Assembly (NCBI RefSeq): GCF_003149535.1
Contig: NZ_QGDB01000002.1
Coordinates: 434,001-498,000 of the forward strand
Length of the DNA: 64,000 nucleotides
Source: Falsochrobactrum shanghaiense
GTDB lineage: Bacteria > Pseudomonadota > Alphaproteobacteria > Rhizobiales > Rhizobiaceae
Reading direction: 5' to 3'
How positions within the stretch are numbered: the stretch's first letter is position 1; every line of letters starts with the position of its first letter. The notes under the pieces are model-generated. The model did not search any database, was not told the origin of the DNA, and was given only the letters and a program-made list of their open reading frames with translations. Of the stretch, positions 19,757 to 27,585 are shown one piece after another. A program made the position numbers and the translations under genes.

Positions 19757-20515
19757 TTAGAGATAATAAACGCCGATACGCTTGCCGCCGATTATTTCGA
19801 CGGCAATTTCCATCTGATAGATGTCTTGCAGGATTTCCGGGCGAATGAGTTCGTCCGGAGTTCCCTGATGCACGACCCGGCCATGGCGCATGGCGACGAT
19901 GTGGTCGGAATAGCAGGACGCGAAATTGATGTCATGCAGCACCAGCACGACCGTCTTGCCCAATTCATCGGCCGCGCGCCGCAACAGCTTCATCATCGCG
20001 GCGGAATGCTTCATATCCAGATTGTTGAGCGGCTCGTCCAGCAACACATAATCCGTATCCTGACACAGGACCATCGCCACGAATGCCCGCTGGCGCTGAC
20101 CGCCTGAAAGCTCATCCAGAAAGCGGTCCTGAAGATCCTCAAGCCCCAGATAGCCGATGGCCTGTTCGACATGTTTGAGGTCTTCGCTGTTGGGCCGACC
20201 CTTGGAATGTGGATAGCGGCCAAAGGCAACCAGATCGCGGACCGTCAGGCGCGAATTGATGGCATTGTCCTGCCGCAGGATCGAAAGCCGCTTTGCCAGC
20301 ACATCACCGGGCGTCTTCACGACATCCAGTCCATCCACGGTGACGCGGCCCTTATCCATCGGCAAAAGGCGGCTGACCATGGAAAGCAGTGTGGATTTAC
20401 CAGCACCATTCGGCCCGATGATCGAGGTGATGCCGCGCGCCGGCAATTTCAGCGTCACATCGTCAACGACGAGGTTCGTGCTGTAGGATTTGCTGACTTG
20501 GCTGATTTCGATCAA
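19757..20515 (-). CDS. Siderophore ABC transporter ATP-binding protein (FecE/YclP type)
   Basis: A 252-residue ATPase of the iron-complex family. Walker A GPNGAGKSTLLS, Q-loop LSILRQDNA, signature [12 protein letters not shown], Walker B YVLLDEPLNNLDM and the switch His in VLVLHDINFA are present. The NNLDM variant is characteristic of the FatE/YclP (petrobactin, catecholate) branch. It is the last gene of the minus-strand iron operon; its stop abuts the stop of the convergent peptidase gene with no base between. The ATG overlaps the upstream permease by four bases. Confidence 0.92.
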   Translation of the reverse strand: MIEISQVSKSYSTNLVVDDVTLKLPARGITSIIGPNGAGKSTLLSMVSRLLPMDKGRVTVDGLDVVKTPGDVLAKRLSILRQDNAINSRLTVRDLVAFGRYPHSKGRPNSEDLKHVEQAIGYLGLEDLQDRFLDELSGGQRQRAFVAMVLCQDTDYVLLDEPLNNLDMKHSAAMMKLLRRAADELGKTVVLVLHDINFASCYSDHIVAMRHGRVVHQGTPDELIRPEILQDIYQMEIAVEIIGGKRIGVYYL

Positions 20516-21468
20516 CGTGCCGTACCTCTTACAAGAAGGATTATGAAGACAATCCCGCCGAGAAATTCGATGATGACGCTGAGCGCCGTATTGAAAGCAA
20601 AGACGCGCTCAAGAACCGTCTGCCCTCCGACGATACACAGGATCGCCAGCAGCACCGCCACCGGCAAGATGACGCGATGTTTGGCAGAGCCTGAAATCAT
20701 ATAGGCAAGATTGGCGACAAGCAGGCCAAAAAAGGTGATCGGGCCAACAAGAGCGGTGGATACAGAAACAAGGATCGTCACGATCAGCAGGATCTTATGG
20801 ACCTCGCGGCGATAATTGAGGCCGAGATTGATCGCCGGATCGCGTCCGAGCGAGAGCACATCCATCACATGAATGAGGCGCAGGCCATAAAGCGAGACGG
20901 CTGCCACGATAATGGCCGCAAGCAGGAGAATATCGGCATTGATGCTGTTGAAGGTGGCAAAGAAGCGATCTTGCAATATGGCAAACAGGTTGGGGTCGAG
21001 CATTCGTTGCATCAGGTTTGAGATGCTGCGGAAGAAGACGCCGAATATTATGCCCACAAGCATTACCAGATGGAGACTGCGCGCAGCACCTGAAAACAGC
21101 CATGCATAGAGCAATCCGGCAAAGATGATCATGATGGCTGCTTCGGCGAGGAAGCGGATATTGGGCCCGATGCCTTCGATATGAACCGCGCCGAACGCGA
21201 AAACCGCAAGGGTCTGGATGAGGATATAGAGGGCATCGAAGCCCATGATCGACGGCGTCAGGATACGATTATGCGTGACGGTTTGAAACAGCACCGTGGA
21301 AACCGCGATTGCATAGGCGACCAGCAGCATTCCCGCGAGTTTGGTTCCGCGAAATGACAGAATAAATGACCAGCTTCCCTTGGCACCGAGTGTCATGAAG
21401 GCGGCGCAACTTAGCACCACGAGCACGGCCAGAAGGGTGATGATGAAGGCGGGACGGCTCTTAGGCAA
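20512..21468 (-). CDS. Siderophore ABC transporter permease (FatC/YclO type)
   Basis: A 318-residue FecCD-family inner-membrane permease with eight to ten hydrophobic helices. Family stretches include NRILTPSIMGFDALYILIQT, DVLSLGRDPAINLGLNYRRE and LVGPITFFGLLVANLAYMIS. Overlaps the upstream permease by eight bases and the ATPase by four. Together with the other permease it forms the heterodimeric channel. Confidence 0.92.
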   Translation of the reverse strand: MPKSRPAFIITLLAVLVVLSCAAFMTLGAKGSWSFILSFRGTKLAGMLLVAYAIAVSTVLFQTVTHNRILTPSIMGFDALYILIQTLAVFAFGAVHIEGIGPNIRFLAEAAIMIIFAGLLYAWLFSGAARSLHLVMLVGIIFGVFFRSISNLMQRMLDPNLFAILQDRFFATFNSINADILLLAAIIVAAVSLYGLRLIHVMDVLSLGRDPAINLGLNYRREVHKILLIVTILVSVSTALVGPITFFGLLVANLAYMISGSAKHRVILPVAVLLAILCIVGGQTVLERVFAFNTALSVIIEFLGGIVFIILLVRGTAR

Positions 21469-22492
21469 GGCGCGACCCCCGCCGTAAAAGCAGATAAAGG
21501 AAGATCGCGCTTCCCACCACGCCCATCATGGTTCCAATAGGAATTTCATAGGGATAGCGGATCAGGCGACCGGCAATATCACAGGCGAGAACGAGAGCGG
21601 CCCCCAGAACCGCAACCCAGGGCACCGCACGGCGCATATTATCGCCTATGAATATGCTTACCACATTGGGCACGATCAGACCCAGAAACGGGATCATGCC
21701 GACCGTCACCACGACGGATGCGCTCACCATGGAGACAATGACAAGGCCGAGCGTTACGACGCGACGATAATTGAGGCCCAGATTGGTGGTGAAATCCTCG
21801 CCAAGCCCGGCAACCGTAAAACGGTCGGCGGCGATATAGGCAATTATCGTGAGGAAGAAGGAAAGCCACAACAGCTCATAGCGCCCGCGAAGAACGCCGG
21901 AGAAGTCGCCATTGGTCCATGAGTTGAGCGATTGCAGCAGATCGAAGCGATAGGCTATGAAAGTCGTGATCGCGCTGACGACCCCGCCCAGCATAATGCC
22001 GACCAGTGGCACGACCAGAATGGAGCGAAGCGGGATAGCGCGCAGGATACGCAGGAAGAGCGCCGTACCGGCGAGGGCGGTGACGGAAGCCACCAGCATC
22101 TTGCCGAAGACGGGTGTTTCGGGTGCAAACAGAATAACGAGAAGAATACCGAGGCTCGCCGATTCCACCGTGCCCGCGGTTGACGGCTCGACGAAGCGGT
22201 TACGGGTCAGCATCTGCATGATCATGCCGGCCACCGCCATCGACATTCCGGCAAGGATGATGGCCAGCGTGCGGGGTATGCGGCTGATCAGGAGAACCTG
22301 CGTGGCGCGGTCTGTGCTGCCAGTCCCGAAAAGCGTGTTTAGCGACACATCGCTGACGCCGATAAACAGGCTGGTTACAGCCAGTACGGCGACAATGATT
22401 ATGGCGGCTGCAAATCCTTTCACGCTGGGGTCCTGTTTTCCTGCCTTGTCACAATAACGGGCCATCCGGCTTTGCCTGCGAATGGCCCGCAT
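21461..22492 (-). CDS. Siderophore ABC transporter permease (FatD/YclN type)
   Basis: A 343-residue FecCD-family permease. Landmarks: TLAIILAGMSMAVAGMIMQM, NRFVEPSTAGTVESASLGIL, GLGEDFTTNLGLNYRRVVTL and VVTVGMIPFLGLIVPNVVSI. The first nine residues are polar and Arg-rich; an internal ATG at 22465 (MARYCDK) may be the true start. It starts 18 bases after the binding-protein stop, so the four transport genes are one operon on the minus strand. Confidence 0.91.
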   Translation of the reverse strand: MRAIRRQSRMARYCDKAGKQDPSVKGFAAAIIIVAVLAVTSLFIGVSDVSLNTLFGTGSTDRATQVLLISRIPRTLAIILAGMSMAVAGMIMQMLTRNRFVEPSTAGTVESASLGILLVILFAPETPVFGKMLVASVTALAGTALFLRILRAIPLRSILVVPLVGIMLGGVVSAITTFIAYRFDLLQSLNSWTNGDFSGVLRGRYELLWLSFFLTIIAYIAADRFTVAGLGEDFTTNLGLNYRRVVTLGLVIVSMVSASVVVTVGMIPFLGLIVPNVVSIFIGDNMRRAVPWVAVLGAALVLACDIAGRLIRYPYEIPIGTMMGVVGSAIFLYLLLRRGSRLA

Positions 22493-22510: not shown

Positions 22511-23440
22511 TTATTTCGCCTTGTCGAAAGCCTGCGACAGCTGCTCGATATTGTTGTGCATCGCACCCAGGCCGCCTCCGACGAGATACCAGTTCTGCGA
22601 GACCAGATAGACGATCTGGTCATTCTTCGAAGCGTTGGTCTGGCGGACGAGGTCGTTGTCGAGAAGCTGTTTGGCCGAATTGCCTTCACGGCCGATCGCA
22701 GCATCGCGATCAATGACGAACAACCAGTCAGGATTGGCTTCCAGCAGGAATTCCGCGCTGATTGGCTGGCCATGATTGCCGATGGAAAGATCAGGTGCCG
22801 CCGGTTCGATGCCGAATTCATCGTGCAGCGTGCCAAAACGCGATCCGGGGCCATAGGCGCTCATTTTGCCGCCAGAGGTGAGGATCATCAGGCCCTTGCC
22901 TTTTCCGGCAGCTTTTTCATGCAGGGCCTTGATTGCCGCATCGAGCTTTTCGACTTCGGCCTTGGCTTCCGTTTCCTTGTCAAAAATCCGACCGAGCTTT
23001 TCGACATTGGCTTCGACATCGGAAACGAAGTTCTTGGCATCCACCGTCAGATCGATCGTGGGGGCGATCTTTGCCAGTTCAGCATATTTTGCCGCAGAGC
23101 GACCGCCGACGATGATCAGATCGGGTTCAGCGGCATTGACCGCTTCATAATCGGGTTCAAACAGCGTGCCGACCTTGGTGTAATCATCGCCTTCATATTT
23201 TTTCAGATAGTCTGGAAAAGCGATATTGCTTGGAATGCCGATTATCTCGACGCCGAGGCGGTCAAGATTGTCGAGCGTTGCAAAGTCGAACACCACGACC
23301 TTTTGCGGATTGGCAGGAACGGCCGTTTCGCCCTGGGCGTGCTTGATGTTGATGTCGGCAGCGCTGGCCGCAGAGGCGAGGGCGGCTGCGACAAATACTG
23401 CACCGCAGAGACGGGATATGTGCCGGCTGAGGTTCAACAT
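22511..23440 (-). CDS. Siderophore-binding periplasmic protein (FatB/YclQ type)
   Basis: A 309-residue class III binding protein. Signal peptide: MLNLSRHISRLCGAVFVAAA then LASAASA. The mature start INIKHAQGETAVPANPQKVV and VFDFATLDNLDRLGVEIIGI matches the FatB/YclQ/CeuE group that binds catecholate or petrobactin-like siderophores. Further on, EPDLIIVGGRSAAKYAEL is the usual second-lobe entry. ATG 23440 follows AGAAGGA with nine bases; TTG 23461 has no site. It lacks a lipobox, fitting a Gram-negative. The real ligand is unknown. Confidence 0.9.
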   Translation of the reverse strand: MLNLSRHISRLCGAVFVAAALASAASAADINIKHAQGETAVPANPQKVVVFDFATLDNLDRLGVEIIGIPSNIAFPDYLKKYEGDDYTKVGTLFEPDYEAVNAAEPDLIIVGGRSAAKYAELAKIAPTIDLTVDAKNFVSDVEANVEKLGRIFDKETEAKAEVEKLDAAIKALHEKAAGKGKGLMILTSGGKMSAYGPGSRFGTLHDEFGIEPAAPDLSIGNHGQPISAEFLLEANPDWLFVIDRDAAIGREGNSAKQLLDNDLVRQTNASKNDQIVYLVSQNWYLVGGGLGAMHNNIEQLSQAFDKAK

Positions 23441-23497
23441 GGTATTCGGTCCTTCTATCAATCCTGTGCTTTATAGTCTGGTTTTCTTCCAGTCAAA

Positions 23498-23627: not shown

Positions 23628-25760
23628 TCAAAATTTCGATGTGAGAGAGATGAAGTAGCTTCTGCCGTTCTCAACGTAATTAGATTCTGTCTTCGGCTGT
23701 TTATCGAAAATATTGTTCACGCCGAGGCGGAGAGTTACATGTTCCGTAGGATCATATTTGAAGGAAACATTGGCAACCGCGTAGGGTGATACGTTCTGGG
23801 CTACAAGTGTTTCAGGGGACAGAACATAATCAACCTGCTTGCCATAATAATCGACTGAGCCAGTAACGCTGAAGTCTTCACGCGCCTGCCAGGTGACTTC
23901 CGAATGGACCGAGTATTCCGGATCCGCGGAAAGAGGCATTCCTGTTTCAAGGTTTTTGGATTCAAACAGGTAGGTAAATGAGTTCGTCCAGGTCCAGTCC
24001 TGATGAGGATAGACCGTCAATCCGCCTTCCAACCCTTGTGTGCGAGCGCGGTCGATATTGACCTGTTGCACATATTTGGTGCCTTCGCCCGTTATAAGCG
24101 ACGCTTGGCGGGCCGAGGTGATCTTGTCGTCAATTTCATTATAGAAATAGGTCAGGCTGGCTTCCCATATGCTTTGCTGATAAACGCCGCCAAGCTCGAA
24201 GCTGTTGCTCGTTTCCGGCTTCAGGTCCGGATTGCCAACCATTTCGCAAGGGCCACCAACGGCACCGCAACCGCGACCCCGAGACGTCTGTACCCAGTTC
24301 GGATTCAGCTGGCGCATATTTGGCGCCTTGAATGCCTGCGCCCACCCGGCCTTGAAAGTCAGATTGTCGTTGAAATCATAATTTAGATAGACACGAGGGC
24401 TTGCGTGGGTGCCGAATTTCTCGTGCTGATCAATACGAAGGCCAGCTGTCAATTTCAGATCTTCACGAAGCTTGATCTGGTCTTCGACAAATATTGCCCC
24501 GGTCCACATGCTCGTTTCAGTGGAGCCAGTGGTTCCGGTTACAGAGTTGGCTTTTCCAAGGTTTTCCGGATCACTCATTTCTTCGTAACGAAGTTCACCG
24601 CCAATCGTCAAATCCTGTTCAAACCAGAAATCCAACGGCATTGAAAGTTTGCCGTCCAGCGTATAGCTGCGCACATTGATGGTCGTGTCACCGGTTACAA
24701 CGCCACTCCGGTCAATAGTATTGTGATGGTTATCGGCATTTTCGATAAATGCCGTGATCGTCGATGTGCCAAAATCCCATTCGCCCACATGCCGGAGGGA
24801 GCCCGTAGTGCGGCGGATAGAGGTCTTACTCGTATCGATCTCACCGTCAGCTAGATAAGGACGATATTTCTCCTGCCCTGTGCTTCCTTCAACTTCAAAC
24901 AATTGGTTGGAAGTGGGGGTCCAGGAGAATTTTGCCGTAATGTCATAATCATCGACGCCGCGCGGCGTCTGGATGTCATCATGCTCTGTCGGATTAGAGG
25001 GTTTTTGTCTACCGATACTGCCGTAAGCTGTGAAAGTCAGCTCATCGGGAACAATAGGCCCACTTACATATGCGCTTACTTTTTTGGTGACACCCGTTGA
25101 TTTGCTCTCAGGTTGAATCCATTCAGTGGTGAGGGATCCCGTCCAGCTATCTTTAGATTTCTTGGTGATAATATTTACCACACCACCCAATGCATCTGAT
25201 CCGTACAGCGTGGACATTGGACCACGAACGATTTCGACCCGCTCGATCGCGTCAACAGGAATCCAGTCAAGATCGCCATTGTAGTGACGCAAGGTTGTAA
25301 GGCCAGCATTTACGCGCTTTCCATCAATAAGAATAAGCGTGTATCCGCTGCCCATGCCGCGCATACTGATACCGCGGGTTCCATCACTTCCAAAACCGAC
25401 ATTGACGCCCGGTACGGTTCGCAATGCTTCCGTTATATCGGGTGCTGCTCTTTGCTGTAGTTTTTCCTGGCTCAGAACAGAGATGCTTGCTGGCGCATCC
25501 TTTGCGGTCGTTGCGATCGAGGACGCCGTAACAACGATCTGATCGAGTACAATTCCGCCACCATTCGTCGTGGCCTGCGCAGCTTCATTGCTGGTTGCAT
25601 CTGTGTTTGATGCATTTTGCGCAAGAGTTGTCGTATTACCAAGAATGAGTGCCGTCGAAAGACATGTACCTGCAAAAACAGCCTTTATGAAGAGCGATCT
25701 GCGGATCGACTGCCCGCTCTGCGCATCTTCGATACACAATCCCCGAAACAAGCTGGTCAT
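23628..25760 (-). CDS. TonB-dependent siderophore receptor
   Basis: An outer-membrane receptor of about 710 residues. A signal peptide with hydrophobic core FIKAVFAGTCLSTALILG ends near LAQ. The TonB box region is probably DQIVVTAS; the plug follows (ISVLSQEKLQQRAAPDITEA, GISMRGMGSGYTLILIDGKR, RGPMSTLYGSDALGGVVNII). The rest is a beta barrel ending in YFISLTSKF, with the terminal Phe needed for insertion. It resembles the FepA/CirA group. ATG 25760 was chosen over GTG 25769; neither has a close ribosome site. Base composition looks more AT-rich than its neighbours. It probably feeds the FatB-type importer downstream. Confidence 0.92.
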   Translation of the reverse strand: MTSLFRGLCIEDAQSGQSIRRSLFIKAVFAGTCLSTALILGNTTTLAQNASNTDATSNEAAQATTNGGGIVLDQIVVTASSIATTAKDAPASISVLSQEKLQQRAAPDITEALRTVPGVNVGFGSDGTRGISMRGMGSGYTLILIDGKRVNAGLTTLRHYNGDLDWIPVDAIERVEIVRGPMSTLYGSDALGGVVNIITKKSKDSWTGSLTTEWIQPESKSTGVTKKVSAYVSGPIVPDELTFTAYGSIGRQKPSNPTEHDDIQTPRGVDDYDITAKFSWTPTSNQLFEVEGSTGQEKYRPYLADGEIDTSKTSIRRTTGSLRHVGEWDFGTSTITAFIENADNHHNTIDRSGVVTGDTTINVRSYTLDGKLSMPLDFWFEQDLTIGGELRYEEMSDPENLGKANSVTGTTGSTETSMWTGAIFVEDQIKLREDLKLTAGLRIDQHEKFGTHASPRVYLNYDFNDNLTFKAGWAQAFKAPNMRQLNPNWVQTSRGRGCGAVGGPCEMVGNPDLKPETSNSFELGGVYQQSIWEASLTYFYNEIDDKITSARQASLITGEGTKYVQQVNIDRARTQGLEGGLTVYPHQDWTWTNSFTYLFESKNLETGMPLSADPEYSVHSEVTWQAREDFSVTGSVDYYGKQVDYVLSPETLVAQNVSPYAVANVSFKYDPTEHVTLRLGVNNIFDKQPKTESNYVENGRSYFISLTSKF

Positions 25761-25831
25761 ATTTGTCACCGTTAAAGTTGAGCTTTACGCTCTCCTTATG
25801 TATGGCAATAAGATGACGTCAAGGATCATGT

Positions 25832-25848
25832 TTTAAAAGAGTTCCAAA
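25832..25848. promoter_or_regulatory. Candidate Irr box (iron-control element)
   Basis: TTTAAAA-GAG-TTCCAAA differs from the published rhizobial ICE consensus TTTAGAA-N3-TTCTAAA at one base in each arm. It lies between the divergent starts of the TonB receptor (25760) and the LysR-TrpD2 fusion (25886), 38 bases before the latter. Irr binding is inferred from sequence and position only. Confidence 0.5.
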
Positions 25849-25885
25849 TTGCAAAAACCGCAACTAAGCCTATATGGAGGATTCG

Positions 25886-27343
25886 ATGGGTAAGCCTGAG
25901 AAAACGCAGGCAGGGGTTGAAGCAGCGCCTTTGGGGCAATTGCGGCTGTTAATCGCATTGGATGCGCTGCTCGTTGAGGGGAGCGTCGGCGGGGCGGCAA
26001 AACAAATGGGGGTAAGCACCGCCGCCATGAGCCGCCTGCTTGGCCAGATTCGTGAAAAATTCGACGATCCTATCTTAGTCCGCTCCGGGCGCAGCATGAT
26101 TGCCACGCCTAAAGCAGAGGCGCTTCGCAGCAGGCTTCGCCATCTTGCCAATGAGGCAGAGGCTCTCATGAACCTTGGCGGCGCCGATGCTCCAACCGCC
26201 TCGCGCGATGCCCATGAGGGCTGGAAGCATAAAAGCATCATGGGCGCGCCGCCGCGCCTTGGCCTTCGCAAGATTGTCCAACTGGAAAACCACCCATCCC
26301 CGGAACATGTCGCCGCGCAATTTGCGTTCATTCATACAGAGAACGATCCTGCCCGGCGACTGGCAAAATATATCGCAGTAACGGGACGTAAAGTCGGCCA
26401 TACCCGCCCCCTTCATATCGATGAGGCGGAAGATGCATTCACAACGATCCTTGCGGGTGAAGCTGATCCCATGCAGATAAGCGCCTTGCTGCGCCTCATT
26501 CATTATCGCGGGGAAACAGCGCCCGAGCTTGCCGGGATGGCGCGTGCGGCCCATAGATATTATTCCACCGATACGGGCATGCGCTCACCGGCCCTCGACT
26601 GGCCCGCGCATCTTTCAGCCAATTCGCGGCAGTCTCCATGGTTCATACTGGCGGCTTTGCTGGTCGCGCGCGCGGGTTATCCTGTCGTCCTTCATGGCAA
26701 TTACGGGACAGGCGAGCTTTCCGGCAAGCTGGAACTGGCAGCGGAAGCGGTCGACATACCAGTTGCAACATCGCTGGCACAGGCGAAAACGGCACTGGCG
26801 GCACGCCATATCTGCTTTATGCCCCTGGCAGGGTTTGCGCCGCAAATTCATGCGCTGCTTGCGCTCTATCCATTATTTGAATCGCGATCGTCAATTAACA
26901 GTCTGGTCCATCTGCTCAACCCCATGCGGCTTTCAGCGTCCTTCCTCGGCGTCACGCAGCCAGCCTATCGTGAGCTTCACCGCGATGCCGCAGCCCTGCT
27001 CGAGCGGCAATCTGTATCGGTTGTTTCGACGAGCCGCGACGTGGCGGAACTCGTCCCCCATCGCCCGCATGCGATACACCGGCTGATCAATGGTGAAAAA
27101 ACGGATTTGCTGCTGCCGACCTTATCGAAGGCCGATGGGGACAGCCATGTGGGCCTGAGCACTTTCGAATATTGGCAAGCCGTCTGGTCGGGGGCCGCCA
27201 CAGACCAGCGGGCGCAATACACCATCATCGCCACGACAGCTTTGGCCTTGATGACAGTGCAGGGCGCGGATGATGGCAGCTATGCGCAATTCTACAGCAA
27301 GGCAGAAAATTTATGGCTTCATCGGCATCAGCGACGTGTTTAA
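25886..27343 (+). CDS. LysR-type HTH fused to TrpD2/YbiB-like phosphoribosyltransferase domain
   Basis: A 485-residue two-domain protein. Residues about 14-80 are a LysR winged helix (LRLLIALDALLVEGSVGGAA, VSTAAMSRLLGQIREKFDDP, RSGRSMIATPKAEAL). From about residue 120 it resembles YbiB/TrpD2, the anthranilate phosphoribosyltransferase-like nucleic-acid-binding family: RLAKYIAVTGRK, FTTILAGEADPMQISALLRL, SPWFILAALLVARAGYPVVL, HGNYGTGELSG and NSLVHLLNPM. The glycine loop of true TrpD (GTGGD) is not seen. GGAGG five bases before ATG 25886 fixes the start. The normal LysR effector domain is absent. Divergent from the TonB receptor, so likely its regulator. Confidence 0.82.
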   Translation: MGKPEKTQAGVEAAPLGQLRLLIALDALLVEGSVGGAAKQMGVSTAAMSRLLGQIREKFDDPILVRSGRSMIATPKAEALRSRLRHLANEAEALMNLGGADAPTASRDAHEGWKHKSIMGAPPRLGLRKIVQLENHPSPEHVAAQFAFIHTENDPARRLAKYIAVTGRKVGHTRPLHIDEAEDAFTTILAGEADPMQISALLRLIHYRGETAPELAGMARAAHRYYSTDTGMRSPALDWPAHLSANSRQSPWFILAALLVARAGYPVVLHGNYGTGELSGKLELAAEAVDIPVATSLAQAKTALAARHICFMPLAGFAPQIHALLALYPLFESRSSINSLVHLLNPMRLSASFLGVTQPAYRELHRDAAALLERQSVSVVSTSRDVAELVPHRPHAIHRLINGEKTDLLLPTLSKADGDSHVGLSTFEYWQAVWSGAATDQRAQYTIIATTALALMTVQGADDGSYAQFYSKAENLWLHRHQRRV

Positions 27344-27371
27344 CCCATTCCTTGACGGCCAGAAATTGAGC

Positions 27372-27478
27372 TTAAAGCGTGTTGCGTTTTATCGGATTTA
27401 TACAACACGCTTTAACTGTTTGTTTTTACGCATGTCTTTATCCCAAAACCGGTACCCACTTTTGGGAGACATGCTCTA
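27372..27478. repeat. Rhizobial intergenic palindromic repeat
   Basis: Two adjoining hairpins. The first has a 13-base perfect stem (27372-27384 with 27403-27415, TTAAAGCGTGTTG / CAACACGCTTTAA). The second has GCATGTC (27430-27436) with GACATGC (27468-27474) and an inner stem CCCAAAA / TTTTGGG. The end ACTTTTGGGAGACATGCTCT is the sequence common in intergenic repeats of Hyphomicrobiales. May terminate or protect the upstream transcript. Confidence 0.8.
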
Positions 27479-27585
27479 GCTTGCCGTCAAGGAACAGGCC
27501 GGGGGTACGCGCCTATAATCGGCCTGTTTCGCGATTCGATTAAGCTGCTAATAGTGCCAGTCGAAGCGCACAATGCGGCGCCGGT

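What the first reader, a model, noticed from the sequence alone, without database searches (positions are those of the whole stretch)
25886..27343. LysR-type DNA-binding domain fused to a TrpD2/YbiB-like domain
Residues 14-80 read as a LysR winged helix, but the rest, instead of the periplasmic-binding-like effector domain, resembles the YbiB/TrpD2 phosphoribosyltransferase fold (HGNYGTGELSG, NSLVHLLNPM). YbiB is known to bind DNA non-specifically, so the fusion could be a regulator that senses a phosphoribosyl compound or uses the fold as a second DNA clamp. It faces a siderophore receptor gene. I know of no functional description of this architecture.
Basis: partly seen in the sequence, partly recalled or inferred. 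Interest (0 to 1): 0.72.

Follow-up and report, generated by a model that had tools for sequence, protein, structure and literature searches.

The report
Siderophore regulator with borrowed enzyme domain
This gene joins a LysR-type DNA-binding domain to what looks like a retired relative of a tryptophan-pathway enzyme, and it sits beside iron-siderophore uptake genes in various alphaproteobacteria, so it is probably their local switch, with an enzyme fold recruited as the sensing part.

Summary
The fusion is real: one 485-aa ORF with a LysR-type HTH (residues 19-78) and a TrpD/TrpD2-fold domain (149-484), no LysR substrate domain. 41 distinct sequences (window's included) share it; plasmid copies occur in three alphaproteobacterial orders. 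Its partner is constant: a TonB receptor or siderophore binding-protein gene faces it in 27 of 29 distinct genome loci, and siderophore uptake genes lie within 10 kb in 13 of 13 plasmid loci fetched. The intergenic region holds a conserved 50-bp block ending in a TTGC-N7-GCAA dyad. Best reading: a local regulator of (probably catecholate) siderophore uptake whose effector domain is a recruited enzyme fold. Its DNA-clamp idea is weakened, not excluded: the column of YbiB Arg123 is never basic in 52 sequences, that of Arg92 sometimes is. Boldest reading: the old anthranilate pocket senses 2,3-dihydroxybenzoate or siderophore fragments; untested. Records mostly call it 'glycosyl transferase family protein'; my paper searches found no functional description, but the founding YbiB paper is not held.

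The parts
25886..27343 (+). fusion gene: LysR-type HTH + TrpD2-like domain, 485 aa
25940..26119 (+). HTH_1 (LysR-type winged HTH), residues 19-78
26108..26179 (+). predicted long helix, residues 75-98, in the place of the LTTR linker helix
   Evidence: model
26330..27337 (+). TrpD/TrpD2-fold domain, residues 149-484
25814..25863. conserved 50-bp intergenic block (one search prints it one base too low; position read)
25849..25863 (.). candidate operator, dyad TTGC-N7-GCAA (T-N11-A)
25831..25847 (.). weak Irr-box (ICE)-like sequence; the motif is recalled, and better formed in relatives such as L018
   Evidence: inference
25794..25822 (-). putative promoter of the receptor operon: TTGACG, 17-base spacer, ATAAGG
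   Evidence: read; inference
23628..25769 (-). TonB-dependent receptor, nearest to FepA/CirA models but below their cut-offs
22511..23461 (-). siderophore periplasmic binding protein (relatives YclQ, CeuE, SstD)
21461..22492 (-). ABC permease, in one sequence cluster with the next one
20512..21468 (-). FecCD-type ABC permease
19757..20515 (-). ABC transporter ATPase

Best explanation
A local transcription regulator of a siderophore (probably catecholate) uptake locus. The LysR-type HTH binds the intergenic region, most likely the T-N11-A dyad, which lies about 69 bases upstream of the inferred start of the receptor operon; the TrpD2-like domain stands in for the usual LysR effector domain as dimerisation and signal-input domain. 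A ligand that reaches the cytoplasm through the transporter would switch the operon, probably on. Shown by computation: architecture, conservation, genomic partner, conserved block. Inferred: binding to this block, ligand control, activation. The ligand is a guess.
For: Receptor or binding-protein gene facing it in 27 of 29 distinct genome loci (30 loci, L145 repeats L004). Siderophore uptake genes within 10 kb in 13 of 13 plasmid loci fetched, out of 42 records covering 80% or more of the query. Of 101 family genomes, all 9 with the fused gene (G078's is split) are among the 30 with the binding protein at E<=1e-50 (hypergeometric 6.9e-6, not corrected for kinship). 50-bp block above all 300 shuffles in 15 of 17 loci tested, of 27 available. 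A 22-base pattern made from the block fits exactly once in the genome; the other 5 matches have 3 mismatches, as many as the reversed control gives. In 52 fused sequences W239, P240, S244, H270, G271, R384 never vary.
Against: No binding, expression or ligand data. Misses: L015 (starts at residue 100, none of the genes), L022 (contig fragment). In G051, G096 and G078 the binding protein lies on another contig. The block is not above shuffles in 7 of 13 plasmid loci nor in L138, L144, and among close kin its conservation may be mere ancestry. A perfect dyad stands at that place in 7 of 41 loci, two of them with identical letters (L143, L228). In two Azospirillum and one Rhizobium loci the receptor is downstream on the same strand. 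'Catecholate' rests on nearest relatives, not on met cut-offs.
Confidence: 0.7

Rival explanations
1. The TrpD2 domain is a non-specific DNA clamp as in YbiB and strengthens HTH binding.
For: YbiB is a relative in sequence and fold. The fused domain is more basic than the unfused (mean pI 7.8 against 6.4, mean net charge +0.7 against -4.4). Lys/Arg281 in 45 of 52; plasmid copies often basic at 246 (9 of 11) and 248 (6 of 11).
Against: Arg123 column basic in 0 of 52; Arg92 area basic in a minority of the 41 genome copies (246: 9, 248: 5), against 57 of 57 and 54 of 57 unfused.
Confidence: 0.13
2. The domain senses PRPP or another phosphoribosyl compound.
For: TrpD fold; His270-Gly271 kept in fused, unfused and TrpD rows alike, Gly in 98% of the unfused.
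Against: GTGGD, the N-S-T segment, the Lys before HG and the D of the D-E pair are replaced.
Confidence: 0.07
3. The domain is only a dimerisation scaffold; there is no ligand, and iron control comes from Irr or RirA alone.
For: YbiB is a head-to-head dimer (PMC10123104, passage); an ICE-like sequence lies in the block.
Against: Residues specific to the fused family in the region of the old active site never vary (S244, R384 in 52 of 52), more than a scaffold seems to need.
Confidence: 0.2
4. The domain is still an enzyme, acting on an imported siderophore product.
For: Acidic residues remain near the old metal site (D385 in 51 of 52, E388 in 38 of 52).
Against: PRPP motifs lost.
Confidence: 0.06

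Closest known systems
LysR-type transcriptional regulators
   Same: HTH_1, long helix after it, divergent target operon, T-N11-A dyad
   Different: TrpD2-like fold in place of the LysR substrate domain
TrpD2 / YbiB (DNA-binding, ObgE partner)
   Same: fold; PRPP motif absent
   Different: extra HTH; Arg123 column not basic, Arg92 column mostly not; siderophore neighbourhood
PRK09071 / NF006564 proteins without HTH
   Same: same NCBIfam model; the other clade of the tree
   Different: no HTH; 24 of 30 fetched loci lie near sulfur-relay, dsr, siroheme or nitrate reductase genes
IrgB of Vibrio cholerae (recalled; search found no paper)
   Same: LysR-type regulator facing a catecholate receptor gene
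   Different: ordinary LysR effector domain (recalled)
ModE (recalled)
   Same: LysR-type HTH joined to a foreign ligand domain
   Different: molybdate-binding TOBE domains
AraC-type siderophore regulators PchR, YbtA, AlcR (PMC7600106, passages)
   Same: regulators of siderophore genes
   Different: unrelated DNA-binding and effector domains

Membership tests
LysR-type regulator | N-terminal HTH_1 | tested here: met
   E 3.8e-11
LysR-type regulator | C-terminal LysR substrate (effector) domain | tested here: not met
LysR-type regulator | linker helix after the HTH | tested here: met
   helix 75-98 in the model, moderate confidence
LysR-type regulator | binding to a T-N11-A operator | tested here: inconclusive
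   dyad present; binding cannot be tested here
TrpD2 (YbiB) | TrpD-like fold without the PRPP motif | tested here: met
TrpD2 (YbiB) | basic nucleic-acid site (Arg92, Arg123) | tested here: inconclusive
   Arg123 column 0 of 52 basic; Arg92 area mixed
TrpD2 (YbiB) | head-to-head homodimer | not testable with these tools
   single chains only were predicted
Anthranilate phosphoribosyltransferase (TrpD) | GTGGD and D-E motifs | tested here: not met
   the genome has a TrpD elsewhere (L001)
NF006564 / PRK09071 | score over the curated cut-off | tested here: met
   415.5 against 257 bits

The most novel reading that the evidence does not exclude
A tryptophan-pathway enzyme fold became the sensor of a LysR-type regulator: the pocket that holds anthranilate (2-aminobenzoate) in TrpD now binds 2,3-dihydroxybenzoate or a catecholate-siderophore fragment and switches siderophore uptake. 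It would be a ligand-sensing regulator family found in at least three alphaproteobacterial orders, partly on plasmids, and mostly annotated as glycosyl transferases.
Probability: 0.25. Interest if true: 0.78.

Novelty: new variant of a known kind. Interest (0 to 1): 0.62.

Why it matters
LysR-type regulators almost all sense through one periplasmic-binding-like domain (established knowledge). Here that domain is replaced throughout a conserved family by an enzyme-derived fold, with a constant genomic partner that names the likely signal. It would be a clear case of a metabolic enzyme turned transcriptional sensor, it gives the poorly understood TrpD2 fold a testable ligand question (does it bind benzoates?), and it would correct a misleading 'glycosyl transferase' annotation. 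The contrast with the unfused sister group, near siroheme and sulfur-relay genes, is a second lead.

Tried and rejected
Sequencing-error or two-gene reading: rejected. LysR substrate domain: no Pfam hit. TrpD activity: motifs missing. My first view that the fusion is confined to Hyphomicrobiales (1 of 385 class genomes) was wrong: plasmid records show it in Rhodospirillales and Rhodobacterales. My first view that both YbiB arginines are simply lost was too strong; the recount shows a mixed picture, so I raised the clamp rival from 0.10 to 0.13 and lowered the best explanation from 0.72 to 0.70. Two apparent exceptions without a receptor (L017, L139) were antisense ORFs of my crude gene caller; tblastn found the receptor. 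Long frames outside the fused clade (L158, L170, L174, L061, L059) hold no HTH; G334 and G420 were not checked by Pfam. Paper searches for a functional description; nothing on this architecture in what was listed. Not held: the founding YbiB paper and the iron-regulon paper PMC1698941. Not done: a search of the whole genome for further binding sites beyond one pattern; pocket analysis on coordinates, which were not available.

Full report

Who has it. In the window's GTDB genus 33 of 35 genomes match NF006564 over its cut-off; of 31 of those looked at, 30 carry the full fusion and one is split (L082). G504 and G510 were not looked at; G499 (99% complete) and G511 (72% complete) have no match at 1e-50. 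In 101 genomes drawn over the family, 10 pass the cut-off: 8 fused, 2 unfused (G034, G065); a ninth fused gene, in G078, is split and below it. In 297 genomes of the order 29 pass: three fused (G000, G294, G625), the rest without HTH by alignment. In 385 genomes of the class only the window's own gene reached the HTH; 43 others matched from model position 129 or later. In plasmid records 51 match and 42 cover at least 80% of the query, 20 of the 51 being Agrobacterium, nearly alike; the fused copies include Azospirillum, Cereibacter, Sulfitobacter, Pannonibacter, Shinella, Neorhizobium, Pararhizobium and Rhizobium, and HTH_1 passes the cut-off in 9 of 10 tested. In a tree of 118 sequences (plasmid copies not included) the 41 fused, the 57 unfused and the 20 TrpD separate; support of the fused node is low (0.58), that of the unfused 0.91.

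Its neighbours. Window order: receptor, binding protein, two permeases, ATPase, all facing away from the gene. Of 30 genome loci, 28 (27 of 29 without a duplicate) have the receptor or the binding protein facing the gene; misses are L015 and L022. The receptor comes in two kinds: 65-93% identical to the window's in three loci (L003, L013, L139), 31-35% in most others; an IroE/Fes-type esterase accompanies 17 of 29. Binding protein, permeases and ATPase are better conserved. In the 13 plasmid loci fetched, the transporter lies within 10 kb in 11 and the other two (L229, L232) have a TonB receptor. The window's receptor and binding protein score nearest to FepA/CirA and SstD but below those curated cut-offs; PDB relatives of the binding protein include YclQ and the enterochelin-binding CeuE-type entries. 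Hence 'catecholate' is likely, not proven. Brucella itself makes 2,3-dihydroxybenzoate and brucebactin (PMC10374146, passage).

Control DNA. A 50-bp block (25814-25863) recurs upstream of the gene. Against 300 shuffles it stands out in 15 of 17 loci tested (L138: 31 of 300 and L144: 11 of 300 shuffles reach it); in plasmid loci it beats all 200 shuffles in 6 of 13, not in Azospirillum, Cereibacter, Sulfitobacter or the two Rhizobium loci. It ends in TTGC-N7-GCAA, a T-N11-A dyad as LysR proteins use (recalled): perfect at that place in 7 of 41 loci, any place in 8, against 0.63 on average and at most 5 in 200 shuffles; L143 and L228 share the same letters. Elsewhere the left arm is degenerate (TTTC, TTCA, TTCG). 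An Irr-box-like sequence overlaps the block (motif recalled). A -35/-10 pair read by eye puts the dyad near -69, a usual place for a LysR activator site (recalled).

The domain. In 20 TrpD rows GTGGD is invariant; fused rows read AYLSP, unfused rows SY-AGK. The D of the D-E pair is V in 95% of the fused (RDVAE). His270 and Gly271 are kept. Position 328, Arg in 20 of 20 TrpD rows and 95% of unfused, is Tyr in 98% of the 41 fused. In 52 fused sequences W239, P240, S244, H270, G271 and R384 are among 32 invariant positions. The YbiB DNA-binding arginines. The fused domain is less acidic than its unfused kin. So the PRPP site is gone, a family-specific set of residues fills its place, and a role in DNA contact is weakened but open.

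How it may work. A dimeric regulator held by the TrpD2 part, HTHs on the dyad, changes shape when a small molecule enters the cleft. The TrpD cleft binds 2-aminobenzoate (PDB complexes are among the hits); the siderophore building block 2,3-dihydroxybenzoate is a close chemical analogue. This makes the catechol-sensor reading attractive, but nothing here tests it; I give it 0.25.

Novelty. LysR HTHs on foreign domains are known (ModE, recalled), so this is a new variant of a known kind. Records call it 'glycosyl transferase family protein' in most annotated rows, 'LysR family transcriptional regulator' in two and 'hypothetical protein' in two.

Noticed in passing
L147-L176 (unfused relatives): TrpD2-like PRK09071 proteins without HTH lie near TusBCD/DsrEFH, TusE/DsrC, DsrP, a CobB-like amidase (DsrN by position), siroheme CobA/CysG or NasC genes in 24 of 30 loci; in 9 they stand between dsrP and the dsrN-like gene. 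Misses: L149, L165, L167, L173, L175, L176. Some query proteins came from these same loci. A possible unnamed part of sulfur/siroheme metabolism.
   Followed up: partly
window 27353-27489: Palindromic intergenic stretch downstream of the gene that folds far better than shuffles (z -6.0); resembles rhizobial intergenic mosaic repeats (recalled); a 21-base core is single in the window.
   Followed up: partly
L225 10287-11735: In an Agrobacterium pAt plasmid a multicopper oxidase gene lies between the fusion gene and the siderophore transporter.
   Followed up: no
L233 7399-9450: In Neorhizobium sp. NCHU2750 the annotated gene runs on into an IalB domain; the record has two matching places.
   Followed up: no
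L082, L033, L015: Broken or shortened copies: two split over two ORFs, one starting at residue 100. Not mended.
   Followed up: no
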